Below, piece by piece: positions 43,970 to 64,000 of a stretch of 64,000 bases of DNA; positions within the stretch are counted from its first letter, which is position 1; each line of letters starts with the position of its first letter. A program made the position numbers and the translations under genes. The notes beneath the pieces are model-generated. The model saw nothing but the letters and a program-made list of their open reading frames with translations, was not told the origin of the DNA and made no database searches. The DNA comes from Rubrivivax sp. (lineage in GTDB: Bacteria; Pseudomonadota; Gammaproteobacteria; Burkholderiales; Burkholderiaceae_C): assembly GCA_019635285.1 (NCBI GenBank), contig JAHBZS010000011.1, positions 62,001 through 126,000 of the forward strand, written 5' to 3'.

Positions 43970-43986
43970 CTGCGCCCTCAAGCACC

Positions 43987-45152: not shown

Positions 45153-45343
45153 GGTCAGGCACTCCCCCGGTTCATTGCCTACATCGGCCAAGCTGGAACC
45201 TTAGCAGGTGCCCGGCCGCGCGCAGCCGCTCGAGCCTGCAGCCGCCTCTGCCGCGACGCACCAAGCCGCTCGCACGCTAGGCGCTCCGGCCAGGCAGGGG
45301 CGACTCGCCGCGCCGGACGAGCGTTGGGCGCTCGACGAAGGGC

Positions 45344-45376: not shown

Positions 45377-46324
45377 TCAGCTCAAGGCCAGCCGCACCAG
45401 GTCGTCGACCGACGCATCGCGGCGGAAGCCCGCGCCTTCCGCGGCAGCCGTGACCAGCGGCGGAAAGCGCGCGAACAGCGCTTCGACCCGTTCGTCCGGC
45501 GCATAGCGCACCAGCTCGGCAGCCGGCGTGCCGTACACCCGGCCGACGGCGTCAACCAGTTCGGCCATCGACGCGCGCCGCGTCGGCAGCGTCAGCGCGC
45601 GGCCGGCCGGCAGCGCGGCGGCGTCGACCTGCGCGCCATGCAGCAGCTGATCCACCACGCACGGCAGCGACGACGCCCAGGTCGTCGCTGCAGGCGAGGT
45701 CGGACAGGTGAAGGGCCGTCCGGCCGCCGGTTCGCGCAGCAGGTCGCTGAGAAAAGCCGACAGCTGCCCGGTGCGCGCCGGCGGACGCGCCAGCACGCCG
45801 GGCAGGCGCAGCGAGCGGCCGTCGATCCAGCCGCGGCGGCTGAAGTCGGCCACCAGCAGTTCACCGACCAGCTTGTGCATGCCGTAGCTCATCACCGGCT
45901 GCTTCGGCGTGTCGTCGTCGACCGGGCCGCGCAGCGTGCCGAACACGGCGATGCTGCTGGCAAAGACGAACACCGGCGCCGCGGCGCCCGCGTCGGCCTG
46001 CGCCTTGCAGCGTTCGAGCAGCGCCTGCGTCGCGTCGAGGTTGACGCGACGCGCCAGCGCGTACTGTTGTTCGGCCATGCCGCCGGGGATGCTGGCCAGG
46101 TGGAACACCACGTCGACGCCGTCGGCGAAGGCGCGGTCCAGCAGCCGGTCATCGGCCAGGTCGCCCGCCAGCGCTTCGACGCGCGCGTCGGCCGCCGCGT
46201 CCAGCCGCAGGTCGAGCAGCCGCAGCCGCTCGATCGTGCGGCTGCGCAGCGTGCCCGCCTCGAGCAGTTGCCGCGCCAGTGCGCGGCCGACGAATCCGTC
46301 GGCGCCGGTGATGAGCACGCGCAC
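45377..46324 (-). CDS. denD: NAD-dependent sugar-acid dehydrogenase, D-erythronate dehydrogenase (DenD)-like
   Basis: 315 aa extended SDR. The cofactor motif ITGADGFVGRALAR is followed by VFHLASIPGGMAEQQYALARRVN, a sequence characteristic of the DenD group, the Tyr-x3-Lys YGMHK, and LRLPGVLARPPARTG. DenD oxidises D-erythronate at C2; related proteins act on other uronate/aldonate-like acids, so substrate is open. Last gene of the long minus-strand operon, 1 nt after the FAH-family gene. Confidence 0.8.
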   Translation of the reverse strand: MRVLITGADGFVGRALARQLLEAGTLRSRTIERLRLLDLRLDAAADARVEALAGDLADDRLLDRAFADGVDVVFHLASIPGGMAEQQYALARRVNLDATQALLERCKAQADAGAAAPVFVFASSIAVFGTLRGPVDDDTPKQPVMSYGMHKLVGELLVADFSRRGWIDGRSLRLPGVLARPPARTGQLSAFLSDLLREPAAGRPFTCPTSPAATTWASSLPCVVDQLLHGAQVDAAALPAGRALTLPTRRASMAELVDAVGRVYGTPAAELVRYAPDERVEALFARFPPLVTAAAEGAGFRRDASVDDLVRLALS

Positions 46325-46325
46325 T

Positions 46326-47312
46326 TCAGCCTCCCGCGGCGACCACCCGCTGGTCGATCACGCCGAAAGGCCCGTCGCGGCCATCGGCGAACTTGGCCTG
46401 CATGCGCACCCGGTCGCCGAACTTCATGTAGCCGGTCTTCGCCGCACCCTGCTCGAGCATCTCGATGACGCGCCGCTCGGCGATGCAGGCCGAGCCGGCC
46501 GCGCCGCCGGCGTTGGACACCGTGCCCGAGCCGACGATCGTGCCGGCGCTCAGGCGCCGCGTGTGCGCGGCATGCGCGACCAGTTCGCCGAAGTGGAAGT
46601 TCATCTCGCGGCCGTTGGGCTCGCCGAAGCGCTGGCCGTTCCATTGCACGTGCAGCGCCAGGTGCACGCGCCCGCCCGCCCAGGCGTCGCCCAGCTCGTC
46701 GGGCGTCACCGCGATGGGCGCGAAGGCGGTCGAGGGCTTGGCCTGCAGGAAGCCGAAGCCCGACTGCATCTCGCGCGGGCCCAGCGCGCGCAGGCTCCAG
46801 TCGTTGATCTGCACGACCAGCCGGATGCAGCCCAGCGCGGCGTCGGCCGACGCGCCCATCGGCACTGGGCCGGTGACCACGCCGAACTCGCCCTCGAAGT
46901 CGATGCCGTCGGCCTCGCGCGGCAGCGGCACGTCGGCCTGGCAGCCGAGGAAGTCGTCGCTCGCGCCCTGGTACATCACCGGCACGGTGTCGAACTGCGG
47001 GATCGGCGGCGAGTTGAAGGCACGCTCCATCAGCCGACCGTGGTTCAGGAAGGCCGAGCCGTCCAGCCACTGCGGGCTGCGCGGCAGCGGCGCGAGGCAG
47101 GGCGCGGCGTCGAAGGGCAAGGCGCCGGCGGCGGTGCCGGCATTCAGTTGCTCGTACAGCGCCTGCAGCCGCGGCTGCACCGCGTCCCAGCGCTGCAGCG
47201 CGTCGATCAGGCTGGCGGCGATGCCGGTGGCGGGCACGGCGCTGCGGCCGTCGCGCGAGACGACCATCAGGCGGCCGTCCGGCGTGCCGTCGGCTTGGGT
47301 GGCGAATTTCAT
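46326..47312 (-). CDS. Fumarylacetoacetate hydrolase-family protein
   Basis: 328 aa metal-dependent hydrolase/hydratase/decarboxylase. Two metal-binding Glu in DFEGEFGVV and Asp in VQINDWSLR are visible, with the catalytic Lys of FLQAKPSTAF and the SAGTIVGSGTVSN motif of full-length bacterial FAH-type enzymes. Members act late in aromatic degradation on ring-cleavage products. Here it would act on a linear 3,5-dioxo-acid or its relative, if the operon is catabolic. 12 nt behind a Bug-type gene. Confidence 0.88.
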   Translation of the reverse strand: MKFATQADGTPDGRLMVVSRDGRSAVPATGIAASLIDALQRWDAVQPRLQALYEQLNAGTAAGALPFDAAPCLAPLPRSPQWLDGSAFLNHGRLMERAFNSPPIPQFDTVPVMYQGASDDFLGCQADVPLPREADGIDFEGEFGVVTGPVPMGASADAALGCIRLVVQINDWSLRALGPREMQSGFGFLQAKPSTAFAPIAVTPDELGDAWAGGRVHLALHVQWNGQRFGEPNGREMNFHFGELVAHAAHTRRLSAGTIVGSGTVSNAGGAAGSACIAERRVIEMLEQGAAKTGYMKFGDRVRMQAKFADGRDGPFGVIDQRVVAAGG

Positions 47313-47324
47313 GTCAGCGATCCT

Positions 47325-48314
47325 TCAGTTGCCCGGCAGATCCAGGCGCAGGTTGGCGGCCTTGATGACCTTGGCATAGCGTTGGGTTTCGGCGTCGACG
47401 AAGGCGCCAAAGCCCTCGGGTGACAGCGTCGACGGCTCCGGGCTGCCCAGCAGCACCAGCTTGTCGCGCGCCTCGGGCGTGGCCATCGCCCGCTGCACTT
47501 CGGCATTGAGCCGCCTGACGGCCTCGCGCGGCAGGTTGGCCGGCGCGAACAAGCCGAACCAGCCGGTAACCTCGAAGCCGGGCAGGCCCGATTCGGCCAC
47601 CGTCGGCAAGTCGGCCGGCAGCACCGGCGAACGCCGGGCACCGGTCTGCGCGATCAGCTTCAGCTTGCCGTCCTTGACCTGCGGTGCCACCACCAGCGCG
47701 CTGTTGAACATCAGCTGCACCTGGCCGCCCATCAGGTCGTTCAGGGCCGGCGCCGCGCCCTTGTAGGGCACGTGCAGCATCTGCACGCCGGCCATCTGGT
47801 CGAACATCTCCCCGGCCAGGTGCAGCGTGTTGCCCACGCCGGCCGACGCATAGGCGATCTTGCCCGGGTTGCGGCGCGCCGCGTCGATCAGCTCGCGCAC
47901 GTTGTTCGCCGGCAGGCTGGGATGGGCGACGATGACCATCGGCCCCGGCGGCACCACCAGCGCCACCGGCACGAAATCGCGCGCGCTGTCGTAGGGCAGC
48001 TTCGGGTACAGCGTGGCATTGCTGGCATGCGCGGCGCTGGCGAAGAGCAGCGTGTGGCCATCGGTGGATTTGGCGACGAAGTCGCTGGCGATGATGCCGT
48101 TGGCGCCGGGCTTCGATTCGACCACCACCGGCTGGCCCAAGGCCGCGGCCAGCTTGTCGGCCAGCAGCCGCGCCACCAGGTCGCTGGTGCCGCCGGGTGG
48201 AAATGGCAGCACGATGCGCAGCGGCCGCGTCGGCCAGTCGGCGGCCCGCGCCGGCACGGCGGCGGCGGCCGCGGCGAGAAGCAGCGCGCGGCGCGTGAGT
48301 GAGCTTGCATTCAT
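47325..48314 (-). CDS. Tripartite tricarboxylate transporter-type binding protein (Bug/TctC), copy 1
   Basis: 329 aa periplasmic solute receptor. Twin-arginine-like/Sec signal (SLTRRALLLAAAAAAVPA, cleavage near ARA-AD), then WPTRPLRIVLPFPPGGTSDL, the Bug family's classic first strand, and ANGIIASDFVAKSTDGHTL, HVPYKGAAPALNDLMGGQ. Ligands of this family are carboxylates or aromatic acids. No TctA/TctB membrane partners are adjacent. It follows the second Bug gene by 2 nt. ATG 48314 chosen over TTG 48320. Confidence 0.9.
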   Translation of the reverse strand: MNASSLTRRALLLAAAAAAVPARAADWPTRPLRIVLPFPPGGTSDLVARLLADKLAAALGQPVVVESKPGANGIIASDFVAKSTDGHTLLFASAAHASNATLYPKLPYDSARDFVPVALVVPPGPMVIVAHPSLPANNVRELIDAARRNPGKIAYASAGVGNTLHLAGEMFDQMAGVQMLHVPYKGAAPALNDLMGGQVQLMFNSALVVAPQVKDGKLKLIAQTGARRSPVLPADLPTVAESGLPGFEVTGWFGLFAPANLPREAVRRLNAEVQRAMATPEARDKLVLLGSPEPSTLSPEGFGAFVDAETQRYAKVIKAANLRLDLPGN

Positions 48315-48316
48315 CG

Positions 48317-49294
48317 TCAATCCACCGTGATCTGGTTGTCCTTCACCACCTTGGCCCAGCCGCGTGCGTCCTCGGCCAGAAAGGCCTTGAACGCCGCCGG
48401 CGTGCTGCCCACCGGCGGCAGCCCGTAGTCGCGCAGCAGCGCCCGGAAGTCGGCGGATTCGACGATGCGGTTGGACAGCGCGGCCAGCGCCTGCACCGTG
48501 GCCTCGGGCGTCTCGCGCGGCACGAAGATGCCCTGCCAGGAATCGCCGCTGAAGCCGGGGAAGCTCTCGCCCACCGTCGGCACCTCGGGCAGCATCTCCA
48601 GCCGCTTGGCGCTGGTGACGGCCAGCGCGCGCACGCGGCCGCCCTTGATCTGGCCGATCGCCGTGGTGCTGGCGTCGACGCCGACGTCCACGCGCCGGCC
48701 GATGACGTCGGGCATGAACGCGTCCTTGTAGGGGATGTGCGTCATGTGCGCGCCCGCCGTGTTCAGCAGCCGCGCCATCACCACGTGCAGCCCGGTGCCG
48801 ATGCCGCCGCTGGCGTAGGTCAGCGCGCCGGGCTTGGCCTTGGCGTCACGCAGCAGATCGTCCAGCGTGCGCCATGGCGCGTCGGCGCCCACCAGCAGCA
48901 CGTAGGGCACCGCCAGCACCTGCGTCACCGGCGTGAAGTCCTCGGCCTTGTACGGCAGCTTGCGGAACACATAGGGGTTGATCGAGAAGGTGTTGTTCAC
49001 CGTCCAGAGCAGCGTGCTGCCGTCGGCCGGCGCTGCGGCCGCCGCCTGCGTGGCGATGATGCTGCTCGCGCCCGGCTTGTTCTCGACCACCACCGGCTGG
49101 CCGCTCAGCCTGGCGAAGCGCTCGGCCCATTGGCGGGCCACCACGTCGGGCGACACGCCGGCGGGGAACGGCACGATCACCCGCACCGGCTTGCTCGGAA
49201 ACGCCGGCTGCGCGCGTGCCGCACCGGGCGCCAGCAGCGCCGCCGCCGCGCCCAGCAGAAGGCGGCGTCGCGCCGCGGGATTCGAATGCGTCAT
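48317..49294 (-). CDS. Tripartite tricarboxylate transporter-type binding protein (Bug/TctC), copy 2
   Basis: 325 aa, paralogue of the Bug protein downstream. Signal peptide (ARRRLLLGAAAALLAPGAAR, then AQP), then FPSKPVRVIVPFPAGVSPDVVARQ and ENKPGASSIIATQAAAAAPADG; HIPYKDAFMPDVIGRRVDVGVD later. The residues lining the pocket differ from copy 1 (VSPDV versus TSDLV), suggesting a different ligand. AGAGGA ribosome-binding site before ATG 49294. Lies between an SDR and the other Bug gene. Confidence 0.9.
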   Translation of the reverse strand: MTHSNPAARRRLLLGAAAALLAPGAARAQPAFPSKPVRVIVPFPAGVSPDVVARQWAERFARLSGQPVVVENKPGASSIIATQAAAAAPADGSTLLWTVNNTFSINPYVFRKLPYKAEDFTPVTQVLAVPYVLLVGADAPWRTLDDLLRDAKAKPGALTYASGGIGTGLHVVMARLLNTAGAHMTHIPYKDAFMPDVIGRRVDVGVDASTTAIGQIKGGRVRALAVTSAKRLEMLPEVPTVGESFPGFSGDSWQGIFVPRETPEATVQALAALSNRIVESADFRALLRDYGLPPVGSTPAAFKAFLAEDARGWAKVVKDNQITVD

Positions 49295-49310
49295 TTGCAG
49301 AAGTCCTCTT

Positions 49311-50072: not shown

Positions 50073-50076
50073 CGGC

Positions 50077-50655
50077 TCAGCGCCGGGCCAGCGCTGCCGC
50101 GATCGCCGGGTCGTAGCGGCCGTCGACCAGGATGAACAGCATGCGGCAAGGCTTGTCGGAGCGATTGGCCCAGGCGTGGTTGGTGCCGCGCTGCACGACC
50201 ACGCTGCCGGGCTTGAGCGGTACCTCGCTGTCGTCGAGCACCAGCGTCAGCTCGCCTTCGATGACGATGCCGTAGTCCACCGTCTCGGTGCGGTGCATCA
50301 GCGGGTGCGGCGAACCGGCCTTGACGGTGGACGCCGCCGCGTCGCCGATCTGGCTGAAGGCGTCGTGCATCTTCGCCGCGCCGCGCGCCAGCAGCTCGGG
50401 CGTGTCCGGCGGGATGTCGACGAAGCGGATGCGCGTGCCCTGCGCCGGCGGCGGCAGCATCAGCGGCGCGGTGCTGGGGTCGGCGCCGTTGTCCACCGGG
50501 GCCGGGCTGCCTGCGGTGCACCAGACCTCGTGGAACACCGTGCCGGGGATGGCAGCGATCTCGGCGACCGTGGGCAGCGGCCCGTTGCTGGCGACGATCG
50601 CCTTGCCGTCGGCGTCGTGGCCGGTGACGACGCGGTGGATCGGGGGAAAGTTCAT
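50077..50655 (-). CDS. Cupin-domain protein
   Basis: 192 aa with one cupin barrel in the C-terminal half: motif 1 around MHRTETVDYGIVIEGELTLV and motif 2 VVQRGTNHAWANRSDKP, offering His/Glu/His metal ligands. The N-terminal half (HRVVTGHDADGKAIVASNGP, FHEVWCTAGSPAP) resembles proteins annotated as cupins of aromatic catabolism. Dioxygenase or isomerase activity cannot be told apart. AGGAGCACG precedes ATG 50655. Confidence 0.85.
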   Translation of the reverse strand: MNFPPIHRVVTGHDADGKAIVASNGPLPTVAEIAAIPGTVFHEVWCTAGSPAPVDNGADPSTAPLMLPPPAQGTRIRFVDIPPDTPELLARGAAKMHDAFSQIGDAAASTVKAGSPHPLMHRTETVDYGIVIEGELTLVLDDSEVPLKPGSVVVQRGTNHAWANRSDKPCRMLFILVDGRYDPAIAAALARR

Positions 50656-50695
50656 GTGGCGTGCTCCTGCGTTGCAAGGGGGGCTTGGGACGAAT

Positions 50696-52087
50696 TCAGC
50701 CGCTCGGCTGGGCGGCGGCACGCAGCGCGGCCACGCGCTCGCGCGTATACAGGTCGGTCCACTTCAGCGAATTCAGGTCGCTGACCGAGAAGCGGTCGTA
50801 GGTCCGGCGCTCGAAGCGCTTGCGCTGGCCGCCGACGTAGACCGAAGCGATCGCCGCCGGGTCCAGCAGCACGCGGACATCGGCCAGCGGATCGCCGGTG
50901 ATGCACAGGAAGTCGGCGTGCCGGCCGACCTCGATCGCGCCGGACTGCGCGTGGGCCGGCGTGCCCGGCCGGCCGCGGGGCATCAGCTGGGCGCCCACCG
51001 AGGTGGCGGCGCGCAGCGCCTGCGCGGGCGTGAAGCCCAGCCACTGCACCAGGATGTCGATCTCGCGCGCGTGCCATTCGCCGTAGGGCGTGACGGCGAA
51101 GCCGGCGTCGCTGCCGGTGACGAAGGGCACGCCGGCGTCGCGCAGCCGCCGCAGGTTGCGGCAGCCGATGTCGACCACGCGCTGCTGCATCGCGCAGTAG
51201 CCCGATGACACCGACGGGTCGTGATCCTGGCTGAACTCGATGTTGTTGCGCAGGAAGGTCAGCGTCGGCGCGACGACGCCGCCGGAGCGCAGCAGCGCCT
51301 CGGCGCATTCGTCGTCGGCGAAGAACGCGTGGAAGACCAAGTCCACGCCGGCGCGCGCGGCCTGCAGCACCGCCTCCTTGCCGTAGGCGTGCGTCGCCAC
51401 GCGTTTGCCCAGGCGGTGTGCCTCGGCGACCATCGCGCTGACCTCGTCCTGCGTGAAGGCGGCGATGTGCGTGCCATCCTCGCGGAAGTGCGTGCCGTCC
51501 AGCGCGATCTTGATGAAGTCGACGCCGGCCTTGGCCTGCCGGCGCACCTCCTCGCGCTGCGCGTCGCGCGTGGTGCACAGCCGCCCCGTCACGTACTCGG
51601 GTGTGCCCACGTGCTCGGGGAACCAGTCGTTCAGGCTGTGGCGGTTGGCCACGACGTTGCTGCTGGCGGCGATGCGCGGGCCGTCGAAGAGTCCGGCGCG
51701 GATGGCGTCGCGCACCGCGATGCTGCAGTTGCCGGCGTCGCCGGGCACGACGATCGACGTGTAGCCCGCCGCCAGCACGTGCTGCGCGAAGAACAGGCCG
51801 CGCAGCGCGCGCCATTCGGGCGTCACCCAGAAGTCGATGTCCTCCTCGCTGCGCGCGTTGCCGAAGACCAGGTGCGTGTGCACGTCGACCATCCCCGGCA
51901 TGACGAAGTGCGCGGCGGCGTCGAGCACCGTGTCCTGCGGGCCGGGCTGCGGCGCCGCCGCGGTCGGCCCGACGTGCGTGAACAGGCCGTTCTCGACGAC
52001 CAGCGTCTGCGCGTGCCGCACCTGGTCTTCCAAGCCGGTGAAGAGCCGCGCGCAGCGGATGAACTGCCGGGGGACACTCATGGTCAT
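50696..52087 (-). CDS. Amidohydrolase (imidazolonepropionase-like)
   Basis: 463 aa binuclear metal hydrolase. Metal ligands: His-x-His in MVDVHTHLVF, the bridging Lys in DFIKIALDG, His in VATHAYGKE, His in LVFHAFF, and Asp in VTGSDAGFAVTP; C-terminal beta strands ARRH-x-DF reassemble (GRHADFLCITGDPL). Substrates of the family are cyclic amides, ureas or imidazolones, or arylamide bonds. The start at 52087 overlaps the cyclase stop (ATGA). Confidence 0.9.
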   Translation of the reverse strand: MTMSVPRQFIRCARLFTGLEDQVRHAQTLVVENGLFTHVGPTAAAPQPGPQDTVLDAAAHFVMPGMVDVHTHLVFGNARSEEDIDFWVTPEWRALRGLFFAQHVLAAGYTSIVVPGDAGNCSIAVRDAIRAGLFDGPRIAASSNVVANRHSLNDWFPEHVGTPEYVTGRLCTTRDAQREEVRRQAKAGVDFIKIALDGTHFREDGTHIAAFTQDEVSAMVAEAHRLGKRVATHAYGKEAVLQAARAGVDLVFHAFFADDECAEALLRSGGVVAPTLTFLRNNIEFSQDHDPSVSSGYCAMQQRVVDIGCRNLRRLRDAGVPFVTGSDAGFAVTPYGEWHAREIDILVQWLGFTPAQALRAATSVGAQLMPRGRPGTPAHAQSGAIEVGRHADFLCITGDPLADVRVLLDPAAIASVYVGGQRKRFERRTYDRFSVSDLNSLKWTDLYTRERVAALRAAAQPSG

Positions 52088-52878
52088 TCCTCGAAGATGG
52101 CGACGGCGCGCGTCCAGCCGGCGCTGGCGCCGCGGATCTTGTGCGGGAAGCAACTGACGGTGAAGCCGTGCGCCGGCAGCGACTCCAGGTTGTGCAGCTT
52201 CTCCAGGTGGCAGTAGCCGATGTCGCGGCCGGCCTTGTGGCCTTCCCAGATCAGCGCCTTGTTGCCGGTCTCGGCCACTTTCTTGGCGGTGTAGCTGAAG
52301 GGCGCGTCCCAGCTCCATGCGTCGGTGCCGGTCAGGCGCACGCCGCGTTCCAGCAGGAACATGGTCGCCTCGTAACCCATGCCGCAGCCGGCGCTGACGA
52401 AGTCCGGGTGGCCGTAGCGCGAGCCGGCGCGCGTGTTGACGAGCACGATGTCCAGCGGCTGCAAGTCGTGGCCGATGCGCGTCAGCTCGGCCTGCACGTC
52501 GGCGGCCGTCGCCACGTAGCCGTCGGCGAAGTGGCGGAAGTCCAGCTTCACGCCCGGCTGGAAGCACCATTCCAGCGGCACCTGATCGATGGTGATGCTC
52601 GGACGGCTGCCGCCGTTCTTCGCGTCCTGCGTCGAGTGGAAGTGCCACGGCGCGTCCAGGTGCGTGCCGTTGTGCGTGGTCAGCGTCACCCATTCGGCGG
52701 CGGCGGCCTCGCCGCCGGGGTAGTCCTCGGGCTTGGTGCCGGGCAGCATGGCCAGGAACTCGGGCAGCGTGTCGGCATGCTTCTGGTAAGTGATCTTCGG
52801 CGCCAGCGGCGGCGGGTCGGAGAGCACGTCGTTCTCCAGGTAGATCGACAGGTCGACGAATCTGCGTTGCGGCTTCAT
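52084..52878 (-). CDS. Cyclase-family hydrolase (kynurenine formamidase-like)
   Basis: 264 aa metal-dependent hydrolase. RRFVDLSIYLENDVLSDPP is the family start; the metal site includes THNGTHLDAPWHFH (HxGTHxDxPxH) and the acid at DIVLVNTRAGSRYG and GMGYEATMFLLERG. Relatives hydrolyse N-formylkynurenine, isatin or cyclic lactams/lactones. In this operon it is a plausible ring-opening hydrolase. Coupled by 4-nt overlaps to both neighbours. Confidence 0.88.
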   Translation of the reverse strand: MKPQRRFVDLSIYLENDVLSDPPPLAPKITYQKHADTLPEFLAMLPGTKPEDYPGGEAAAAEWVTLTTHNGTHLDAPWHFHSTQDAKNGGSRPSITIDQVPLEWCFQPGVKLDFRHFADGYVATAADVQAELTRIGHDLQPLDIVLVNTRAGSRYGHPDFVSAGCGMGYEATMFLLERGVRLTGTDAWSWDAPFSYTAKKVAETGNKALIWEGHKAGRDIGYCHLEKLHNLESLPAHGFTVSCFPHKIRGASAGWTRAVAIFEE

Positions 52879-55492: not shown

Positions 55493-55505
55493 CGTCGTGC
55501 CCCGC

Positions 55506-56986: not shown

Positions 56987-56997
56987 GAGGCTTCTCT

Positions 56998-57927
56998 TCA
57001 GTGCGCGGCGCCGGGCGGCGGCGGGCCGGAGGGCGCCCACTTCTCGCGGTACTCGAACAGGAAGCTCTGCGACGCGTCGGCGCCCATCGGCCCTTCGCGC
57101 GCCACCCAGGTGTCGTCGTGCAGGTCCATGTCGGCGTCGTACTCGACGTGGCAGCCCAGCGGCGAGTTGAAGTACCAGAACCAGTTGCTGCCGAACTTGT
57201 GGCGTCCGGGGCCCCAGAAGCTCTGGTAGCCCTTCTCGACGAAGCGCGTGCCGGCCAGCAGCACGTCGGTGGGCCCGCCCATGTGGAAGGTGAAGTGCTC
57301 GACGCCCTTCATGAACGGCGGCGTCTGGATCATGAACAGCGTGTGGTGGTCCCGCGTGCCGGCCGGGCGCAGGAACGGGCCGACGCCGGTGAAGCGGTCG
57401 GTGCAGACGAAGCCCAGCCGCTGGTAGAAGGCCTGGGCCCGGTCCGCGTCGGGCACGAAGTAGACGACGTGCGACAGCGAACGCGGCAGCGCCGGCGCGT
57501 CGGGGGCCACGCCCAGCAGGTTGGGCCCGCGCTGCGGCGCGGCGCCCGGCGCGTTGACGGCCTCGGCGGCCAGCGCCAGCGGCTTGCGCACCGTGACCTG
57601 GAAGGCGAGCGCGAAGCCGGCGTCGTCCACGCAGCGCACAATGCCGCCGCGGCGCGTGGCCTCGCGGTCGCGCCGCAGCTCGGCTTCGATGGCGTCCAGC
57701 GTCGCCGCGTCGGCCACGCCATAGACCGTCTCGCGCAGCATCGACGCCGTGCCCAGCCCCGGCGGCAGCGACGCGTCGTCCTGCGCGCGCAGCACGATGG
57801 CCGTGCCGTCCAGCGCCTCGAAGCGGCCGCCGCCGGCGTCCTTCAGGCCGTAGTCGACCAGGTACTGCCGGCAGGCCGGCAGGTCGTCGACGCCGAAGAC
57901 CAGTGCGTCGAGTCCAATGATGTTCAT
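56998..57927 (-). CDS. Two-domain VOC-family protein, extradiol dioxygenase-like
   Basis: 309 aa with two vicinal-oxygen-chelate modules. The C-terminal module (about 140-309) has the His in SHVVYFVPDADRAQAFYQ, the His pair in TRDHHTLFMIQ, and the Glu in HVEYDADMDLHD, the 2-His-1-Glu Fe(II)/Mn(II) site of type I extradiol dioxygenases. The N-terminal module (IIGLDALVFGVDDLPACRQY) lacks ligands, as in 2,3-dihydroxybiphenyl dioxygenases. Ring cleavage of a catechol or heterocyclic diol is therefore plausible, but glyoxalase-like functions cannot be excluded. Confidence 0.82.
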   Translation of the reverse strand: MNIIGLDALVFGVDDLPACRQYLVDYGLKDAGGGRFEALDGTAIVLRAQDDASLPPGLGTASMLRETVYGVADAATLDAIEAELRRDREATRRGGIVRCVDDAGFALAFQVTVRKPLALAAEAVNAPGAAPQRGPNLLGVAPDAPALPRSLSHVVYFVPDADRAQAFYQRLGFVCTDRFTGVGPFLRPAGTRDHHTLFMIQTPPFMKGVEHFTFHMGGPTDVLLAGTRFVEKGYQSFWGPGRHKFGSNWFWYFNSPLGCHVEYDADMDLHDDTWVAREGPMGADASQSFLFEYREKWAPSGPPPPGAAH

Positions 57928-57944
57928 GTCCAGTTTCTCCTCTG

Positions 57945-59111
57945 TTAGGCGGCCGTGCGGCCGCCAAGCGTTTCCGCAACCCAGTCGGCGATGTAGTGGC
58001 CGGCGTTGATGCTGTTGTCGAAGCTGGCGTGCTGCACGCCGCCTTCGCGCTCGGTGAAGACCTTCAGCTCCCGCTTCGGGCTGTTGACCAGCTGCTCGTA
58101 GGTGCGCTGCGCCCACTTCAGCGGGATCTGCGAATCGCGCTCGCCGTGCGTCACCAGGAAGGGCACGCGGATCTTCTCGACCACGCCGTCCAGGTGCACG
58201 TTCTCGGCGATGCGCATGAAATCGTCCATGTCCTTGGCGCCCCACACCCACTGCACGTGCGCCCAGTAGTGCGGCACCGGGAAGTTGCCTTCCTTCTCCA
58301 GCCGGCGCTTCTGCACGTCGCGCCAGTCGTGGTTGGCGCCCCAGACCACGCCGCAGGCGAAGCGCGGCTCGAAGGCCACGGCGCGCGGGCAGTAGTAGCC
58401 GCCCAGCGACACGCCTTCGCAGCCGATGCGCTTCGCGTCGACGTCGGGCTGCTGCTCCAGCCAGTCGACGACGCGGCTGGCCCAGTGCTCGGCGTCGAAG
58501 CGCGCGCTCAGGCCGTGCAGGCGCAGCGCCTCGCCGCTGCCCGGCTGGTCGACGACCAGCGAGGACACGCCGCGCCTGGCCAGCCACGCCGGCAGGCCGA
58601 CCAGGTACTTCATCTCCTTGGTCGAATCCAGGCCGTTCAGCTGCACCAGCAGCGGCGCGCGCTGGCCCGGCTGCAGGCCCTCGGCCGGCAGGTACAGCGC
58701 CGACAGATGCGCGCCTTCGTAGGGGATCTCGACGCGCTGCACCTTGTCGCCGAGCAGCCGCGAGCCTTTGAGGAACAGCGCGAGCTCGCGCCGGTACAGC
58801 TCCATGCGGCCCGGCGCGTCGTGTGCCTGCAGCCGCTCGGCGGTGATCAGGTACGACGACGCGCGGCGCAGCTTCTCGCCGGCGGAAAGCAGCCGTCCTT
58901 GGGCTTCGTCCTCGTCGGCGAGCAGGCACAGCTGGTCGGCCATGCGCACCCAGGTCTCGCGGAAGGCTCGGGTGCCGGCCGCGTCGGGCGCCTTGGCCGC
59001 GTCCTGCAGCGGCGCGCACATCGCCTCGATCTCGCCGATGCGCGCGCCCATCTCGATGGCCAAGTCGACCGACAGGTTCCAGACGTAGTTGGTGGGGAAA
59101 TACTTGAACAT
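57945..59111 (-). CDS. Alpha/beta hydrolase with N-terminal helical domain (DHPON hydrolase/FrsA-like)
   Basis: 388 aa. N-terminal ~130 residues are mostly helical (WNLSVDLAIEMGARIGEIEA); then an alpha/beta-hydrolase core with LVQLNGLDSTKEM, the nucleophile Ser in GVSLGGYYCPRA, the acid in VTHGERDSQIPLKWA and His in VQHASFD. This architecture is that of 2,6-dihydroxypseudooxynicotine hydrolase, a C-C bond hydrolase of nicotine breakdown. Here it could hydrolyse a ring-cleavage product formed by the VOC protein next door. Confidence 0.85.
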   Translation of the reverse strand: MFKYFPTNYVWNLSVDLAIEMGARIGEIEAMCAPLQDAAKAPDAAGTRAFRETWVRMADQLCLLADEDEAQGRLLSAGEKLRRASSYLITAERLQAHDAPGRMELYRRELALFLKGSRLLGDKVQRVEIPYEGAHLSALYLPAEGLQPGQRAPLLVQLNGLDSTKEMKYLVGLPAWLARRGVSSLVVDQPGSGEALRLHGLSARFDAEHWASRVVDWLEQQPDVDAKRIGCEGVSLGGYYCPRAVAFEPRFACGVVWGANHDWRDVQKRRLEKEGNFPVPHYWAHVQWVWGAKDMDDFMRIAENVHLDGVVEKIRVPFLVTHGERDSQIPLKWAQRTYEQLVNSPKRELKVFTEREGGVQHASFDNSINAGHYIADWVAETLGGRTAA

Positions 59112-59116
59112 GGCTC

Positions 59117-60154
59117 TCAGAACTCCATCAGGTCACGGGCCGCGACGACCGGCCCCTTGTAGTGCAGCGCCACGCCGTCGACGTAGGCGCTGTCGGGGTC
59201 GGCATCGCGGCCGGGCACGAAGTGCGTCAGCACCACCTTCTTCACGCCGGCGGCCGCGGCCAGGCGGCCGATGTCTTCCGGCACCGTGTGGTCGTCGGCC
59301 ATGTGGCGCATCAGTTCGTCGAACAGCCCCGGCGGCACCTTGCCCTGCTGCGAGGCCATGAAGCGGCGCAGGCTGTCGGCGATCAGCGGCAGGCTCACCA
59401 CCTCGTGCACCAGCAGGTCGGCGCCGCGCGCGAAGTCGGTCAGGTTGGCGCACTTGCCGGTGTCGCCGCTGAAGACGATCACGCGGTCCGGCGTCTGCAC
59501 GCGGTAGGCGAAGGACTTGTCGCGCGCCGCGCCGGCGAGCGACGACGCGTCGAAGTGGAAGTGGCAGTTCTCCACCGCCGTCACCTTGATCAGCTCGTCC
59601 TGGTACACCAGCCCGGCCTCGCGGATGTCGTGGGCCTTGAACAGCTGCGCGGGCGTCTCCGACATCCGCGTATCGGAGCTGCGGATGCGCGCGTTGGGCG
59701 CGAAGTACTGCAGGAAACCCTGCAGCATCGACTCGGTGCCTTCGGGGCCGTGCACATGGACCTCCGAGCGCCGCCCCGTGCTCCACTGCAAGCCCATCAG
59801 CGTGCCCCAGTCGGCGTTGTGGTCGTCGTGGTTGTGGGTGATGAAGATGCGCTCGACGCGGCGGTAGTCCAGCCCCGCCTGCTGCAGCTGCCGCACGACG
59901 CCATTGCCGGCATCGACCAGGTAGATGCGCCCCTGCACGACGATGGCGTTGGCCGGCTGTGCGCGGTGCCCGGCCGGCAGGGGACCGCCTTGCGTGCCGA
60001 GCACGACGAGGCGCGTGCCAGCGGCCGCGGCCGCCGCCGAAGGCGCCGAGCCGGCCGATGCCGTGGGCGCGGTCTGCGCCGCCGCGCCCGTCCAAACGCC
60101 GGCCACCAGGGCCAGCGCGCAAGCCACGCGCGTGGCGTCCAAGAAGCTCTTCAT
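59117..60154 (-). CDS. Exported MBL-fold metallo-hydrolase
   Basis: 345 aa with a signal peptide (ACALALVAGVWTGAAA, then QTAP) and an Ala/Ser-rich linker. The metallo-beta-lactamase motif is HNHDDHNAD; FHFDASSLAG, SGDTGKCANLTDF and VVLTHFVPGRD provide the further ligands, close to arylsulfatase/RNase Z-like MBL hydrolases. Periplasmic, so it would act on the substrate before or after transport. The start overlaps the stop of the USP-hemerythrin gene (ATGA). Confidence 0.86.
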   Translation of the reverse strand: MKSFLDATRVACALALVAGVWTGAAAQTAPTASAGSAPSAAAAAAGTRLVVLGTQGGPLPAGHRAQPANAIVVQGRIYLVDAGNGVVRQLQQAGLDYRRVERIFITHNHDDHNADWGTLMGLQWSTGRRSEVHVHGPEGTESMLQGFLQYFAPNARIRSSDTRMSETPAQLFKAHDIREAGLVYQDELIKVTAVENCHFHFDASSLAGAARDKSFAYRVQTPDRVIVFSGDTGKCANLTDFARGADLLVHEVVSLPLIADSLRRFMASQQGKVPPGLFDELMRHMADDHTVPEDIGRLAAAAGVKKVVLTHFVPGRDADPDSAYVDGVALHYKGPVVAARDLMEF

Positions 60155-61164
60155 CCTGTCGTCCTTTCCGAAGTCATGCCGGCGTGGCCGGCCATTTCGA
60201 GCAGCCGCGCCGCCAGCTGGTCGAAGGATTCGCCGGCGCCGAAGCGCGGGTCGCCGTGGGCCGCGAAGGCCGCGGCCATCTCGCGCCAGTCCTCGGCCTG
60301 CAGATGCAGGCTGGCGGCGGGCAGCACCAGTTGTTCTTCGTCGCGCATGTGCTGCCACTGCGCCTGGGCGAAGTCGCGCACCGCCTGCGCGAAGCCGGAC
60401 CGCTCGCCGGCCTCCAGCAGCCGGCGCATCTGCGCGAACAGCGCCGCGCCGTCTTCGTGCTGCGCGTGCAGCGCATCGAGCAGCGCGTCGTGCGCGCGCG
60501 TGCGCCGGCGCAGCGCGGCGAACAGGTAGGCGTCTTCCTTCGGGTGGTGCAACCGCTCGGGGAACTGATCGATGTAGAAGACCAGTGCGCGCAGCAAGGC
60601 CGGGTCGGGCGCAGGCAGGTCCACCTGCGCGAGCAGCGCATGCAGCACGGCCGCCAGCGAGCGGTGCTCGTCGCGCAGCAGCGCCAGCGCGCGCTGCTCG
60701 TCGCTGGCCGGCGCCAGGTTGCTCTCCACCGCCGCCACCAGCACCGGCAGCGTCGCCGCGTCGAGCAGCTTGCGCGTCACCGAGCCGAGCAGTGCGCCCT
60801 TCAACCCGCGCTTGCCGTGCGAGGCCATGAACACCAGGTCGCAGCCTGCATCGTGCGCGGCCTGCAGGATGGCCTCGTGCGGCCGGTCGCCGGTCAGCAC
60901 CTGCGCATCGCAGGCCACGCCGGCCGCGCGCGCCGCGCTTTCGGCCTTGGCGACGATGGCGCGCGCGTTGCCGGCTGCGGCCTCGGCGAAGGTGGCCGGC
61001 GACAGGGCGTGCAGCAGCGCGCCTTCGCCACGCGCGCCCAGGTCGGCGCGCACGTGCACGAAGGTGATGCGCGCGCCGCCGGCGCCGGCGTAGGCGACGG
61101 CCTGTTCGACGGTGCGCGCGGCCAGCGGCGTGCCGTCGATCGGAACCAGCAGGTGCTTGTACAT
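60151..61164 (-). CDS. Universal stress protein fused to a hemerythrin domain
   Basis: 337 aa. Residues 1-147 are a UspA domain (LLVPIDGTPLAARTVEQAVA; the ATP-loop MASHGKRGLKGALLGSVTRKL). From about residue 160, a hemerythrin four-helix bundle appears with the iron ligands arranged as LRDEHRSL, ERLHHPKEDAYLF, AQHEDGAALF and QHMRDEEQLVLP. Such bundles bind a di-iron centre and sense or carry O2/NO. Fusion of both domains suggests an oxygen- or stress-responsive role, perhaps protecting oxygenases in the operon. It is 9 nt after the RND gene. Confidence 0.88.
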   Translation of the reverse strand: MYKHLLVPIDGTPLAARTVEQAVAYAGAGGARITFVHVRADLGARGEGALLHALSPATFAEAAAGNARAIVAKAESAARAAGVACDAQVLTGDRPHEAILQAAHDAGCDLVFMASHGKRGLKGALLGSVTRKLLDAATLPVLVAAVESNLAPASDEQRALALLRDEHRSLAAVLHALLAQVDLPAPDPALLRALVFYIDQFPERLHHPKEDAYLFAALRRRTRAHDALLDALHAQHEDGAALFAQMRRLLEAGERSGFAQAVRDFAQAQWQHMRDEEQLVLPAASLHLQAEDWREMAAAFAAHGDPRFGAGESFDQLAARLLEMAGHAGMTSERTTG

Positions 61165-61173
61165 CGCGCTCCT

Positions 61174-63591
61174 TCAGGCGGTGCCGGGCTGCACGCCGAA
61201 GGCCTCGGCGCGCAGGTCGGGCACGGCGTGCGCCGGCTTCAACAGAAAGTGCGCCAGCGCCGGCAGCAGCCCCAGCGCGCCGAGCATGTTCCACAGGAAC
61301 ATGAAGGCCAGCAGCAGCCCCATGTCGGCCTGGAACTTGATGGGGCTGAAGACCCAGGTGACGACGCCGATGGCCAGCGTGACGCCGGTCAGCATGACCA
61401 CCTTGCCGGTGAACAGCAGCGCGCGGTAGTAGGCCTCGGACAAGCTCTTGCCTTCGCGCATCTGCGCCAGCGTCACCGACAGGATGTACAGCGCGTAGTC
61501 CACGCCGATGCCGACGCCCAGCGCGATGACCGGCAGCGTCGCCACCTTCACGCCCATGCCCAGCGCCACCATCAGCGCCTCGGCGAGCACCGAGGTGAGC
61601 ACCAGCGGCAGCACCGCCACCAGCACCGCGCGCCACGAGCGGAAGGTGATCCAGCACAGCAGCATCACCGCGCCGTAGACCAGCAGCAGCATCTGCGTCC
61701 ACGCGCTCTTCACGACGATGTTGGTCGCGGCCTCGATGCCGGCGCTGCCCGCGGCGAGCAGGAATTTCACGTCGGCCGTGTCGTTGGCCGCGGCGAAGGC
61801 GGCCACGTGGTCGACCACGCGCGCCAGTGTCTCGGCCTTGTGGTCGCGCAGGAAGGCATACACCGTCAGCAGCGAACAGGCGTCGTTGTACAGGCCGCGG
61901 GGCGCGCCGGCGGTGACGGTGTTCAACATGTCCTGGTTGGGCACGAAGTCGTACCACTTCGGGCTGCCCTCGTTCAGCCCGGCGATGACGCGGCGGTTCA
62001 GCAGCGCCAGCGTGTTGGTGCTTTCCACGCCGTCGATCTGCCGCAGCTGCCACTCCAGCGCGTCGATCTTGTTCAGCGTGGCGTACTGCGCGCACTGGCC
62101 GTCGGGCGTCTTGACCATCACCGCCAGCACGTCGCTGGACGCGCCGTAGGCGGCGTTGACGAAGGCCACGTCGCGGTTGTAGCGGCTGTACTCGCGCAAC
62201 TCGGGCGCGCCGGGGTCGAGGTCGCCGATCTTCAGCCTGGTGCTGACGGCGAAGCCGCCGATGCCCAGCGCCAGCGCCACGGCGATGGCAACGGTTGCGT
62301 GGCGCCGGTGCGTGAAGCGGTCGAGCCAGGCCCACAGCGGCTGCTTGGCGGCGCCCGCCGCGTCGGCGGCTTCGGCGCGCAGGCTGCGCGCCGCCGCCCG
62401 CGGGCTGACGCCGACGTAGCTGAGCAGGATCGGCAGCAGGATCAGGTTGGTGAAGATCAGCGCGCCGACGCCCAGCGACGCGGCGACGGCCAGCTCGCGG
62501 ATGACCTGGATGTCGATGACCAGCAGCACCGCGAAGCCCACCGCGTCGGCCAGCAGCGCCGTCAGGCCGGCGAGGAAGAGGCGCCGGAAGGTGAAGCGCG
62601 CCGCGACGAGCTTGTCCATGCCGCGGCCCACGTCCTGCATGATGCCGTTCATCTTCTGCGCGCCGTGGCTCATGCCGATGGCGAAGACCAGGAAGGGCAC
62701 CAGGATCGAGTACGGGTCCAGCGCGTAGCCCAGCATCGGCAGCAGGCCCAGCTGCCAGACCACGGCCACCAGCGACGCGGCGACGACCAGCAGCGTCGAG
62801 CGCACGCAGCGCGTGTACCAGAACACCATCAGCGCGGCGATGGCCACCGCGATGGCGAAGAACATCAGCACCGCGCGCACGCCGTCGATCAGGTCGCCGA
62901 CGATCTTGGCGAAGCCGGTGACGTGGATCTGCACGCCCTGCTGCTCGTACTTGGCGCGCAGCGACTCGATGCGCTGCGCAAAGGCCGCGTAGTCCAGCGC
63001 GCGGCCTTCGGCGTCCGTCGCCAGCAGCGGCACGTAGATGACGCTGGACTGCGCGTCCAGCGCGACCAGCTGGCCGACTTCGCCCGAACGCGCGATGTTG
63101 GCGGCCAGCTGCTGCAGGCTGGCGGGCGAGCCGTCGTAGCCGTCGGGGATCACCGGGCCGCCTTCGAGCCCGTCTTCGGTGACGCCCACCCAGCGCGTGG
63201 TCGGTGTCCACAGCGACTTCATCTGGTTGCGCGCCACGCCGGGCAGCAGGAAAACCTCGTCGCTCAAGCGGCGCAGCGTGTCCAGGTACGCGGCGTCATA
63301 GATCGAGCCCTTGGGGTTCGCGACGGCGATGCGCACCGCGTTGCCCAGCCCGGTCAGCTCGCTTTGGTGCGCCAGGTAGTTCTGGATGAACGGGTGGTGC
63401 GTGGGAATGGTCTTCTCGAAGCTGGCGTTCAGCTGCAACCGGGTCGCCTGCCAGCCCAGCAGCAGGGTGGCCAGCAGGCACAGCGCGACGACGACGGCGC
63501 GGTGGTTGAACAGCGCACGCTCGATCGGCGAGCCCGAGCGCGGGTCGAAGGCGTCGCCGGCGCCTGCGACGATGGAGGCGACAGGCTTCAC
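61174..63591 (-). CDS. RND/MMPL-family exporter
   Basis: 805 aa inner-membrane pump of the RND superfamily (MMPL/sterol-sensing-like group) with two repeats of one plus five helices: helix 1 VVVALCLLATLLLGW, a large periplasmic domain with NASFEKTIPTHHPFIQNYL, helices 2-6 (AVLMFFAIAVAIAALMVFWY onward, with LVPFLVFAIGMSHGAQKMNG), then a second copy (ATVAIAVALALGIGGF; GLGVGIGVDYALYILSV-like). It would move hydrophobic compounds. GTG 63591 overlaps the stop of the YCF48-like gene (GTGA); this pair recurs in steroid and terpenoid catabolic clusters. Confidence 0.88.
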   Translation of the reverse strand: MKPVASIVAGAGDAFDPRSGSPIERALFNHRAVVVALCLLATLLLGWQATRLQLNASFEKTIPTHHPFIQNYLAHQSELTGLGNAVRIAVANPKGSIYDAAYLDTLRRLSDEVFLLPGVARNQMKSLWTPTTRWVGVTEDGLEGGPVIPDGYDGSPASLQQLAANIARSGEVGQLVALDAQSSVIYVPLLATDAEGRALDYAAFAQRIESLRAKYEQQGVQIHVTGFAKIVGDLIDGVRAVLMFFAIAVAIAALMVFWYTRCVRSTLLVVAASLVAVVWQLGLLPMLGYALDPYSILVPFLVFAIGMSHGAQKMNGIMQDVGRGMDKLVAARFTFRRLFLAGLTALLADAVGFAVLLVIDIQVIRELAVAASLGVGALIFTNLILLPILLSYVGVSPRAAARSLRAEAADAAGAAKQPLWAWLDRFTHRRHATVAIAVALALGIGGFAVSTRLKIGDLDPGAPELREYSRYNRDVAFVNAAYGASSDVLAVMVKTPDGQCAQYATLNKIDALEWQLRQIDGVESTNTLALLNRRVIAGLNEGSPKWYDFVPNQDMLNTVTAGAPRGLYNDACSLLTVYAFLRDHKAETLARVVDHVAAFAAANDTADVKFLLAAGSAGIEAATNIVVKSAWTQMLLLVYGAVMLLCWITFRSWRAVLVAVLPLVLTSVLAEALMVALGMGVKVATLPVIALGVGIGVDYALYILSVTLAQMREGKSLSEAYYRALLFTGKVVMLTGVTLAIGVVTWVFSPIKFQADMGLLLAFMFLWNMLGALGLLPALAHFLLKPAHAVPDLRAEAFGVQPGTA

Positions 63592-64000
63592 CTGGCGGCT
63601 CCCGCGGCGTCGATGCGCCGCACGCCGTGGATCGACAGCGCCAGCAGCGCGCCGTCGCCGAGCACGTGCACGCCGTTCAACGGCGGCAGCGGCTGGCCCG
63701 GCCACGGCCGCAGCGCGGCGCCCTGCAGACCCAGCACCATGCCGGCCTGATTGACGAACACCAGCGAGCCGTCGGCACGCTGCGCCGACGCCGTCACCGA
63801 CACCGGCACCGGCGACGCGATCTGCGTCCAGCTCGCCCCCGCGTCGGCGGAGCGCCAGACGTTGCCGCGCAGCCCGGCGACGACGATCTCGCCGTCGGCC
63901 GGCAGTTCGGCGGTAAAGAAGCTGCCCTTGTACGGCGTGGCCAGCCGCTTGAAGCTTCGGCCGCCATCGGTGGACAGCCGCAGCAGGCCCTGCTCGCCCG
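63588..64000 (-). CDS. YCF48/BNR-repeat protein (partial, 5' end beyond right edge)
   Basis: The last 137 or so residues of a beta-propeller-like protein read in from the right edge. Repeats of the type LRLSTDGGRSFKRLATPY and VWRSADAGASWTQIAS are the BNR/Asp-box signature S-x-D-x-G-x-(S/T)-W. Proteins of this kind (annotated YCF48-like) are encoded next to RND exporters in many proteobacterial clusters for hydrophobic substrates; their role, presumably periplasmic, is unknown. The start and any signal peptide are outside the window. Confidence 0.8.
   Translation of the reverse strand, partial: GEQGLLRLSTDGGRSFKRLATPYKGSFFTAELPADGEIVVAGLRGNVWRSADAGASWTQIASPVPVSVTASAQRADGSLVFVNQAGMVLGLQGAALRPWPGQPLPPLNGVHVLGDGALLALSIHGVRRIDAAGAAR

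What the first reader, a model, noticed from the sequence alone, without database searches (positions are those of the whole stretch)
45377..64000. At least 18 kb single-strand operon for an unidentified cyclic substrate
Seventeen consecutive complete genes plus a partial one are read on the minus strand with gaps of 40 nt or less, six of them overlapping by 4 nt (ATGA or GTGA). The set pairs exporters/importers (RND, MFS, two Bug proteins) with oxygen chemistry (FAD hydroxylase, Rieske ferredoxin, extradiol-like VOC) and hydrolases that could follow ring opening (C-C-type alpha/beta hydrolase, FAH family, cyclase, amidohydrolase). I do not recognise this combination as a described pathway. 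Inferred order: hydroxylation, ring cleavage, C-C hydrolysis, FAH-type step; the amidohydrolase and cyclase hint at a nitrogen heterocycle or amide.
Basis: partly seen in the sequence, partly recalled or inferred. Interest (0 to 1): 0.75.

Follow-up and report, generated by a model that had tools for sequence, protein, structure and literature searches.

The report
Flavonoid-degrading operon of fde type
A long bacterial gene row turns out to be an enlarged version of a known pathway that breaks down plant flavonoids, with a few added genes whose role is still open.

Summary
In detail: 17 complete genes and one partial gene on one strand, gaps of 40 nt or less, six ATGA/GTGA overlaps. The pathway is not unidentified. 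Nine genes are the fde (flavonoid degradation) set of Herbaspirillum in the same order: C-C hydrolase, extradiol dioxygenase, Rieske ferredoxin, FAD 8-hydroxylase, MFS, cyclase, cupin, FAH, epimerase (46-90% identity). The RND gene and the partial gene belong to an AmeABCD-type transport module that stands in FdeA's place. The operon runs past the window; it probably begins with a second FAD monooxygenase split between two contigs, beside a divergent FdeR-like regulator. The likely substrate is a 5,7-dihydroxyflavonoid such as naringenin: C8 hydroxylation, A-ring cleavage, C-C hydrolysis. A nitrogen heterocycle is not supported. New are coupled extra genes: a fumarate-reductase/ketosteroid-dehydrogenase-like flavoprotein seen in none of 84 related loci and an amidohydrolase seen in one. 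Substrate and activities are inferred; nothing was assayed.

The parts
63588..64000 (-). YCF48/COG4447-like protein (AmeC-like), partial in the window; starts at 64670 in window numbering, on the same contig
   Evidence: the window part alone matches no Pfam family; DUF1329 and DUF1302 genes follow upstream on L014
61174..63591 (-). RND transporter, MMPL/HAE3 family (AmeD-like)
   Evidence: Pfam MMPL; TIGR00921 HAE3 8e-46, below its curated cut-off; whole module on the same strand in 35 of 84 loci
60151..61164 (-). universal stress protein fused to a hemerythrin domain (accessory)
   Evidence: Pfam Usp and Hemerythrin; present in 3 of 84 loci, directly after MMPL
59117..60154 (-). metallo-beta-lactamase-fold hydrolase (accessory)
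   Evidence: Pfam, HxHxDH; in 6 of 84 loci, directly before POP in 4 of them (L059, L060, L093, L094)
57945..59111 (-). FdeB-like C-C hydrolase of the DHPON hydrolase/Ayg1/AntI family
   Evidence: best match among solved structures 2jbw, 2,6-dihydroxypseudooxynicotine hydrolase; 81% to L187; GVSLG, D and H motifs
56998..57927 (-). FdeC-like extradiol dioxygenase (two-domain VOC)
   Evidence: 85% to L187; BphC-type matches, below NCBIfam cut-offs; candidate iron ligands invariant in 5 rows
56630..56986 (-). FdeD-like Rieske ferredoxin
   Evidence: Pfam Rieske; CxH...CxxH; 51% to L187
55506..56633 (-). FdeE-like FAD monooxygenase, predicted flavonoid 8-hydroxylase
   Evidence: FAD_binding_3; 73% to L187; in a 43-row supported clade with 8 Herbaspirillum-genus rows; GxGxxG and GD motifs
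54320..55492 (-). FdeF-like MFS transporter
   Evidence: 61% to L187
52875..54323 (-). FAD_binding_2 flavoprotein, VprA/fumarate-reductase/KSTD superfamily; inserted accessory gene, ATGA-coupled on both sides
   Evidence: no match in any of 84 related loci
52084..52878 (-). FdeG-like cyclase-family hydrolase
   Evidence: Pfam Cyclase; 90% to L187
50696..52087 (-). amidohydrolase of the ochratoxinase/imidazolonepropionase-like group (accessory)
   Evidence: 73% in the Ramlibacter paludis fde-like operon only
50077..50655 (-). FdeH-like cupin
   Evidence: 76% to L187
49311..50072 (-). SDR dehydrogenase (recurrent accessory)
   Evidence: in 9 of 84 loci
48317..49294 (-). Bug/TctC periplasmic binding protein
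   Evidence: at least 55% identical copy in 1 of 84 loci
47325..48320 (-). second Bug/TctC binding protein
   Evidence: at least 55% identical copies in 4 of 84 loci
46326..47312 (-). FdeI-like fumarylacetoacetate-hydrolase-family enzyme
   Evidence: 71% to L187
45377..46324 (-). FdeJ-like NAD-dependent epimerase/dehydratase-family enzyme, last gene of the row
   Evidence: 46% to L187

Best explanation
This is an fde-type catabolic operon for plant flavonoids, most likely 5,7-dihydroxy compounds such as naringenin, run by a LysR regulator of the FdeR type. Steps: (1) An AmeABCD-like RND system, the MFS carrier and Bug proteins handle the hydrophobic substrate or its toxic intermediates (inferred). 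(2) The FAD monooxygenase, perhaps with its Rieske ferredoxin, hydroxylates C8 of the A ring (shown for FdeE elsewhere, inferred here). (3) The VOC dioxygenase opens the resulting 7,8-catechol (reported for FdeC elsewhere). From the published pyranone intermediate of the daidzein route I infer a cut between C8 and C8a. (4) The DHPON-hydrolase-like enzyme cuts the ring-to-acyl bond C4a-C5. For 5-hydroxyflavonoids this frees oxaloacetate and a (dihydro)pyranone (inferred). (5) The cupin acts on the pyranone (shown for IfcD in Variovorax); that it adds water and removes CO2 is my reading of the published formulas. (6) FAH, cyclase, epimerase and SDR proteins act on later pieces, and the B ring leaves towards protocatechuate (inferred). 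The flavoprotein, amidohydrolase, USP-hemerythrin and MBL genes are accessory additions to the same row.
For: Nine core genes are collinear with Herbaspirillum fde-like loci at 46-90% identity. G078 is very probably H. seropedicae: its contig C1 is 5,509,723 bp in a genome listed as 5.5 Mb (the species' size is recalled), and its fdeR-fdeA gap has 14 T-N11-A boxes, nine within 60 nt, against 14 boxes with nine in 50 bp in PMC10799723. Published gene numbers FdeC = Hsero_1005 and FdeE = Hsero_1007 (PMC10755750) fit the order. The FAD enzyme falls in the clade of the Herbaspirillum rows. An FdeR-like gene (55%; next best 32%) lies at G000:C38:921-1832. Two fragments that match one FMO gene in 12 loci link C3 and C38. 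The POP protein has DHPON hydrolase as best match among solved structures. Published masses of the daidzein route fit C15H10O7 and C11H8O4. A related Ramlibacter operon also holds a GH3 glycosidase, as expected for flavonoid glycosides. The genome holds five LigB-family matches over the cut-off, compatible with a protocatechuate lower pathway.
Against: No activity, growth or expression data exist for this organism. FdeA is not at its place; another transport module is. FdeD (51%) and FdeJ (46%) are much less conserved than most of the rest. Exact substrate class cannot be read from sequence; FdeE itself accepts many flavonoids (PMC11303751) and was active as a purified enzyme, so the need for the ferredoxin is unclear. 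In Variovorax, deleting the C-C hydrolase homologue did not affect daidzein degradation (PMC11069340); my explanation (daidzein lacks the 5-OH) is untested. In the same paper recombinant IfcB left 8-hydroxydaidzein unconsumed. G078 is unnamed, so its identity is an inference, and 14 boxes are close to the 12 of shuffled sequence. The naringenin papers of 2013 and 2016 were not held.
Confidence: 0.9

Rival explanations
1. The operon serves isoflavones in particular (ifc type, as in Variovorax sp. V35), not flavanones or flavones.
For: IfcB and FdeC are 65.8% identical and the ifc cluster also holds a C-C hydrolase and cupins (PMC11069340). A second, distinct FAD monooxygenase probably begins this operon.
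Against: IfcA is only 36.3% identical to FdeE (PMC11069340), while the window enzyme is 73% identical to that of G078 (probably H. seropedicae) and sits in its clade. Only one cupin gene was found in the operon, not the two of ifc. IfcA itself was not available for a direct comparison.
Confidence: 0.12
2. The enzymes act on another aromatic polyketide-like compound (for example an acylphloroglucinol, naphthopyrone or stilbenoid) and the likeness to fde is one of mechanism only.
For: The C-C hydrolase family also holds polyketide enzymes (Ayg1, AntI). The inserted flavoprotein and amidohydrolase were not seen in the Herbaspirillum loci.
Against: Six of the nine core proteins are 71-90% identical to those of the probable H. 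seropedicae and in the same order, and the FdeR type of regulator is kept. That is closer than mechanism-only likeness would need.
Confidence: 0.07
3. A novel pathway for a nitrogen heterocycle or amide.
For: An amidohydrolase and a cyclase-family (weakly arylformamidase-like) protein are present. Solved relatives of the amidohydrolase include amide hydrolases such as ochratoxinase.
Against: The cyclase is 90% identical to the one in G078 and found at 55% identity or more in 67 of 84 loci. The amidohydrolase is rare (1 of 84). No core gene points to nitrogen chemistry.
Confidence: 0.02

Closest known systems
fde operon of Herbaspirillum seropedicae SmR1 (naringenin degradation, FdeR-regulated)
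   Same: FdeB-C-D-E-F-G-H-I-J-like genes in the same order as in the probable H. seropedicae locus, and an FdeR-type LysR gene, probably divergent.
   Different: FdeA (Phenol_MetA_deg protein) is replaced by DUF1302/DUF1329/YCF48/RND. A second FAD monooxygenase probably stands first. USP-hemerythrin, MBL, FAD_binding_2 flavoprotein, amidohydrolase, SDR and two Bug genes are added.
ifc isoflavone catabolism cluster of Variovorax sp. V35 (PMC11069340)
   Same: Group A FAD monooxygenase, VOC dioxygenase, DHPON-hydrolase-like enzyme and cupin; A-ring cleavage logic.
   Different: IfcA is isoflavone-specific and only 36.3% identical to FdeE; the window enzyme is FdeE-like. ifc has two redundant cupins.
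AmeABCD apolar monoterpene efflux system of Castellaniella defragrans (PMC6394551)
   Same: DUF1302, DUF1329, COG4447/YCF48-like and HAE3-type RND genes in the same order.
   Different: Tied to a flavonoid operon, not to monoterpene genes. Substrate and direction of transport here are unknown. No direct sequence comparison with AmeABCD was made.
Fumarate reductase/flavocytochrome c3, urocanate reductase and 3-ketosteroid dehydrogenase flavoproteins
   Same: Family match to the 482-aa flavoprotein, whole-length for flavocytochrome c3 and urocanate reductase; vinylphenol reductase VprA is the best NCBIfam model, 291 bits against a cut-off of 600.
   Different: The fumarate-site residues H365, R402, H504 and R544 (recalled numbering) align with M, P, Y and L, so a fumarate reductase is unlikely.

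Membership tests
fde operon (A-ring flavonoid catabolism) | FdeE-type FAD monooxygenase | tested here: met
   73% identity to the G078 protein and placement in a supported clade with 8 Herbaspirillum-genus rows; one more distant Herbaspirillum row (L068) lies outside it; flavin motifs
fde operon (A-ring flavonoid catabolism) | FdeC-type extradiol dioxygenase next to Rieske ferredoxin FdeD | tested here: met
   85% and 51% identity, same order; CxH/CxxH and candidate iron ligands
fde operon (A-ring flavonoid catabolism) | Conserved order FdeB-C-D-E-F-G-H-I-J | tested here: met
   All nine in order, with insertions; same order in 33 of 84 loci
fde operon (A-ring flavonoid catabolism) | Divergent FdeR-type LysR regulator | tested here: met
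   55% match on contig C38, linked to C3 by two fragments of one FMO gene; the linkage, and so the divergent position, is inferred across a short assembly gap
fde operon (A-ring flavonoid catabolism) | FdeA outer-membrane-like protein as first gene | tested here: not met
   An Ame-type module and a second FMO stand there; the rest of the genome was not searched for FdeA. Because 35 of 84 loci with the same core hold the Ame-type module, I do not treat this feature as defining
fde operon (A-ring flavonoid catabolism) | Degradation of naringenin or related flavonoids | not testable with these tools
   needs enzyme or growth assays
ifc cluster | IfcA-type monooxygenase | tested here: inconclusive
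   IfcA sequence not available; published 36.3% identity to FdeE makes membership unlikely for the main FAD enzyme; the second FMO is unplaced
ifc cluster | Two redundant cupins IfcD1 and IfcD2 | tested here: not met
   one cupin gene in the operon; the rest of the genome was not searched for a second
AmeABCD-type RND system | DUF1302, DUF1329, COG4447/YCF48 and HAE3 RND genes side by side | tested here: met
   Pfam DUF1302 and DUF1329, YCF48 by likeness to annotated genes, HAE3 model below its cut-off; definition from PMC6394551

The most novel reading that the evidence does not exclude
The inserted flavoprotein is a flavonoid C-ring oxidoreductase that desaturates flavanones to flavones (or the reverse) next to the C4 ketone, in the way ketosteroid dehydrogenases act next to a ketone. 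Together with the amidohydrolase acting as a pyranone lactonase, it would let one operon feed several flavonoid classes into A-ring cleavage. Such an enzyme would be new to aerobic bacterial flavonoid catabolism as far as I know; I did not search the literature for it.
Probability: 0.15. Interest if true: 0.45.

Novelty: new member of a known kind. Interest (0 to 1): 0.28.

Why it matters
It turns an unassigned 18-kb operon into a recognisable flavonoid pathway in a bacterium of a Rubrivivax-related genus. It shows that the fde core is widespread (458 stretches in a collection of 84,980 species genomes encode a relative of the VOC enzyme at E 1e-3; only the best 80 were examined, and not all need be fde) but patchy within a genus (6 of 36 same-genus relatives carry a VOC at 81% identity or more over its length). 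It also yields a testable reading of two loose ends. First, the conserved C-C hydrolase next to the dioxygenase would release oxaloacetate from 5-hydroxyflavonoids only, which could explain why its loss had no effect on daidzein in Variovorax. Second, a flavoprotein and an amidohydrolase with unknown roles are built into the same gene row.

Tried and rejected
Considered and dropped: an orcinol/resorcinol or 3-hydroxyphenylpropionate type pathway (recall only; the Herbaspirillum match settled it); naphthoquinone breakdown (idea from EthD and monooxygenase genes near the Burkholderia anthina copy; not supported by the window); fumarate reductase for the flavoprotein (site residues not kept). The flavoprotein superfamily itself is common: 55 of 61 genomes have a match at E 0.001. 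Close relatives are not: none on plasmids at E 1e-60, and at E 1e-100 1 of 399 genomes of the order, which is the window's own. In the same genus the best other copy (G017, 48%) lies on another contig than that genome's fde-like VOC genes. Amidohydrolase: 4 of 399 genomes at E 1e-60, the window's own included. The 53% relative (G256) and the 40% one in G173 have no fde genes in the 20 kb fetched; the third (G174) was not looked at. On plasmids one 38% match, in Rhodococcus. The Ramlibacter operon that holds the 73% amidohydrolase has no cyclase, cupin, FAH or epimerase match in the fetched stretch. Promoter and terminator scans gave nothing above chance. Intradiol dioxygenase family: one match over the cut-off, 44 bits; LigB: five; so the lower pathway is left open. 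A search of the own genome with the 3-hydroxybenzoate 6-monooxygenase model found nothing over its cut-off. No structure prediction was run; family matches to solved structures seemed enough. Selection bias: the 84 loci are the 80 best VOC hits plus four plasmid regions, and many are cut at contig ends or at the 10-kb flank, so counts of presence are lower bounds. Five of the six same-genus genomes are also among these 80 loci (equal contig lengths), so the two sets are not independent.


Full report
Observation. Translation and ORF lists give 17 complete genes and one partial gene on the minus strand between 45377 and 64000. Junctions range from 4-nt overlaps to a 40-nt gap; six overlaps are ATGA or GTGA, and a seventh (TTGA) depends on a TTG start. 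The gene just downstream (44235-45191, MTA/SAH nucleosidase-like) is separated by 185 nt and belongs to something else.

Recognition. A megablast of the region against plasmids found the same block in Diaphorobacter, Burkholderia anthina and, in part rearranged, Azospirillum, with a more rearranged copy in Alloyangia. In the first three a LysR gene stands next to the block, facing away from it. A scan of GTDB species genomes with the VOC alignment found 458 stretches that encode a relative at E 1e-3; the best 80 loci were kept, several of them Herbaspirillum. In Herbaspirillum frisingense and H. huttiense the order POP-VOC-Rieske-FAD-MFS-cyclase-cupin-FAH-epimerase is that of the nine shared genes in the window. 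I take this for the fde operon of H. seropedicae. Papers that I could read give FdeC = Hsero_1005 as the dioxygenase involved in A-ring cleavage and FdeE = Hsero_1007 as the monooxygenase (PMC10755750, passages), FdeED as monooxygenase plus Rieske protein (PMC8552027, passages), and FdeR as the LysR regulator encoded beside fdeA (PMC10799723, passages). The two original papers (Marin 2013, 2016) were not held; from recall, the 2016 abstract also names FdeG = Hsero_1009 as a putative cyclase and oxaloacetate as a product. Which letter goes with which of the other genes is my inference from order.

How common is the order. Using identity thresholds over 84 loci (80 and four plasmid regions), VOC is found in 84, POP 83, Rieske 78, FAD 74, cyclase 67, FAH 63, MFS 59, epimerase 52, cupin 50. 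All nine are in exact order (other genes may stand between) in 33 of 84; POP-VOC-Rieske-FAD are consecutive in 70 of 84; the DUF1302, DUF1329, YCF48 and MMPL genes are all on the same strand in 35 of 84. Loci were chosen by VOC similarity and many are cut, so these are not frequencies in nature. Within the window's own genus, 6 of 36 relatives hold a VOC at 81% or more over its length; two more (G016, G017) hold diverged ones at 61-67%, and G016 also a 56-residue piece at a contig end that is 100% identical. The cluster is patchy, as expected of an accessory catabolic island.

The start of the operon. The contig (C3) goes on for 4 kb beyond the window with DUF1329 and DUF1302 genes (Pfam) and ends in the last 79 codons of a further gene; the gaps are 11, 20 and 34 nt. 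An FdeR-like gene, 55% identical to that of G078 (next best in the genome 32%), starts 921 bases from the beginning of contig C38; before it, on the other strand, are the first 240 codons of an FAD monooxygenase. In L018, L022, L024, L032, L043, L046, L052, L053, L056, L059, L060 and L086 both fragments match one and the same gene upstream of DUF1302 (C38 fragment 37-48%, C3 fragment 47-58%). Weaker matches to the main FMO occur in many loci, and the C3 fragment alone matches no Pfam family. From the alignment ends in L024 and L032 about 140 bases would be missing between the contigs. So the operon most likely has 21 genes over about 23.5 kb, begins with a second FAD monooxygenase, and is read from a promoter shared with a divergent fdeR. 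A 183-nt part of the 200-nt stretch between them holds 11 T-N11-A boxes against about 7 in shuffles.

Transport. The DUF1302, DUF1329, YCF48 and HAE3-like RND genes match AmeABCD of Castellaniella defragrans in kind and order; its loss lowers tolerance to monoterpenes (PMC6394551, abstract and passages). I infer that the module here handles flavonoids or their toxic intermediates in place of FdeA. My search of the held library for flavonoid, catabol-, DUF1302 and DUF1329 (three of the four terms required) returned four papers, none with the word flavonoid.

Mechanism. Shown elsewhere: FdeE hydroxylates C8 of many flavonoids (PMC11303751, abstract, introduction and passages); the Variovorax route gives 8-hydroxydaidzein, X2 (m/z 301.035) and X3, a hydroxyphenyl-pyranone (m/z 203.035), on which the cupins IfcD1/D2 act (PMC11069340, section 13 part 1, section 17 and passages). 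I computed ions for C15H10O7 (301.0354) and C11H8O4 (203.0350). The pyranone structure implies, by my reasoning, a cut between C8 and C8a and then between C4a and C5. With a 5-OH group the opened side chain is a diketone whose ring-acyl bond is of the kind cut by DHPON hydrolase, the best match of the POP protein among solved structures (1e-20); products would be oxaloacetate and a dihydropyranone. Without a 5-OH (daidzein) this bond is not set up for that enzyme, which would explain why the Variovorax mutant in its homologue still degraded daidzein. This is inference and is offered as a test. The cupin step on X3 balances as addition of water and loss of CO2 (C11H8O4 to C10H10O3, published formula); a second published product, C10H10O4, is not explained by this. 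FAH, cyclase, epimerase and SDR roles are not assigned.

Added genes. The FAD_binding_2 flavoprotein (52875-54323) shares ATGA junctions with both neighbours and has no match at E 1e-10 in the 84 loci. Sequence relatives are flavocytochrome c3, urocanate reductase and ketosteroid dehydrogenases, with VprA as best NCBIfam model, under its cut-off. Aligned with 1lj1, the recalled fumarate-site residues are replaced, while E378 and R381 are kept. A role in C2-C3 redox of the flavonoid C ring, or in phenolic side-chain reduction, is a guess. The amidohydrolase shows the motifs I expected of its metal site (recalled pattern), ochratoxinase-like relatives, and one close copy in a related operon: Ramlibacter paludis, 73%, directly after MFS, where a GH3 glycosidase gene also sits between FAD and MFS. 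That operon has no match to the cyclase, cupin, FAH or epimerase genes in the fetched stretch. GH3 fits removal of sugars from flavonoid glycosides. USP-hemerythrin recurs in three loci and MBL in six. SDR recurs in nine; in seven of them it lies between cupin and FAH.

Verdict. The finding is real and well delimited, but ordinary in kind: a member of the fde flavonoid pathway with an Ame-type transport module and some unassigned extra enzymes. Interest lies in those extras and in the 5-OH hypothesis, not in a new pathway.

Noticed in passing
G000:C38:1-920 and 921-1841 (L201), outside the window: FdeR-like gene and the N-terminal part of a second FAD monooxygenase whose C-terminal part ends contig C3; the two contigs are probably neighbours.
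   Followed up: yes
L185:7190-9469: A GH3 glycosidase gene inside the fde-like operon of Ramlibacter paludis, between the FAD enzyme and MFS.
   Followed up: partly
L181 and L183 (G017), L182 (G016): Same-genus genomes carry diverged fde-like clusters (VOC 59-67%), two of them in G017; substrates may differ.
   Followed up: no
L080: Burkholderia sp. Ax-1719 has two neighbouring fde-like clusters, one with VOC 56% and one with VOC 72%.
   Followed up: no
L075, L076, L082 (Pseudomonas/Stutzerimonas): POP-VOC pairs with a different FMO clade (about 40%) on the other strand and no Rieske ferredoxin match in the fetched stretch; possibly ifc-like.
   Followed up: no
L184 (G017:C30): Two tandem flavoproteins related to the inserted one (48% and 32%), with no other gene of the window matched in the 20 kb fetched.
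   Followed up: no
window 43360-45191: Cytochrome c and MTA/SAH nucleosidase-like genes downstream of the operon, on the same strand, not part of it.
   Followed up: no
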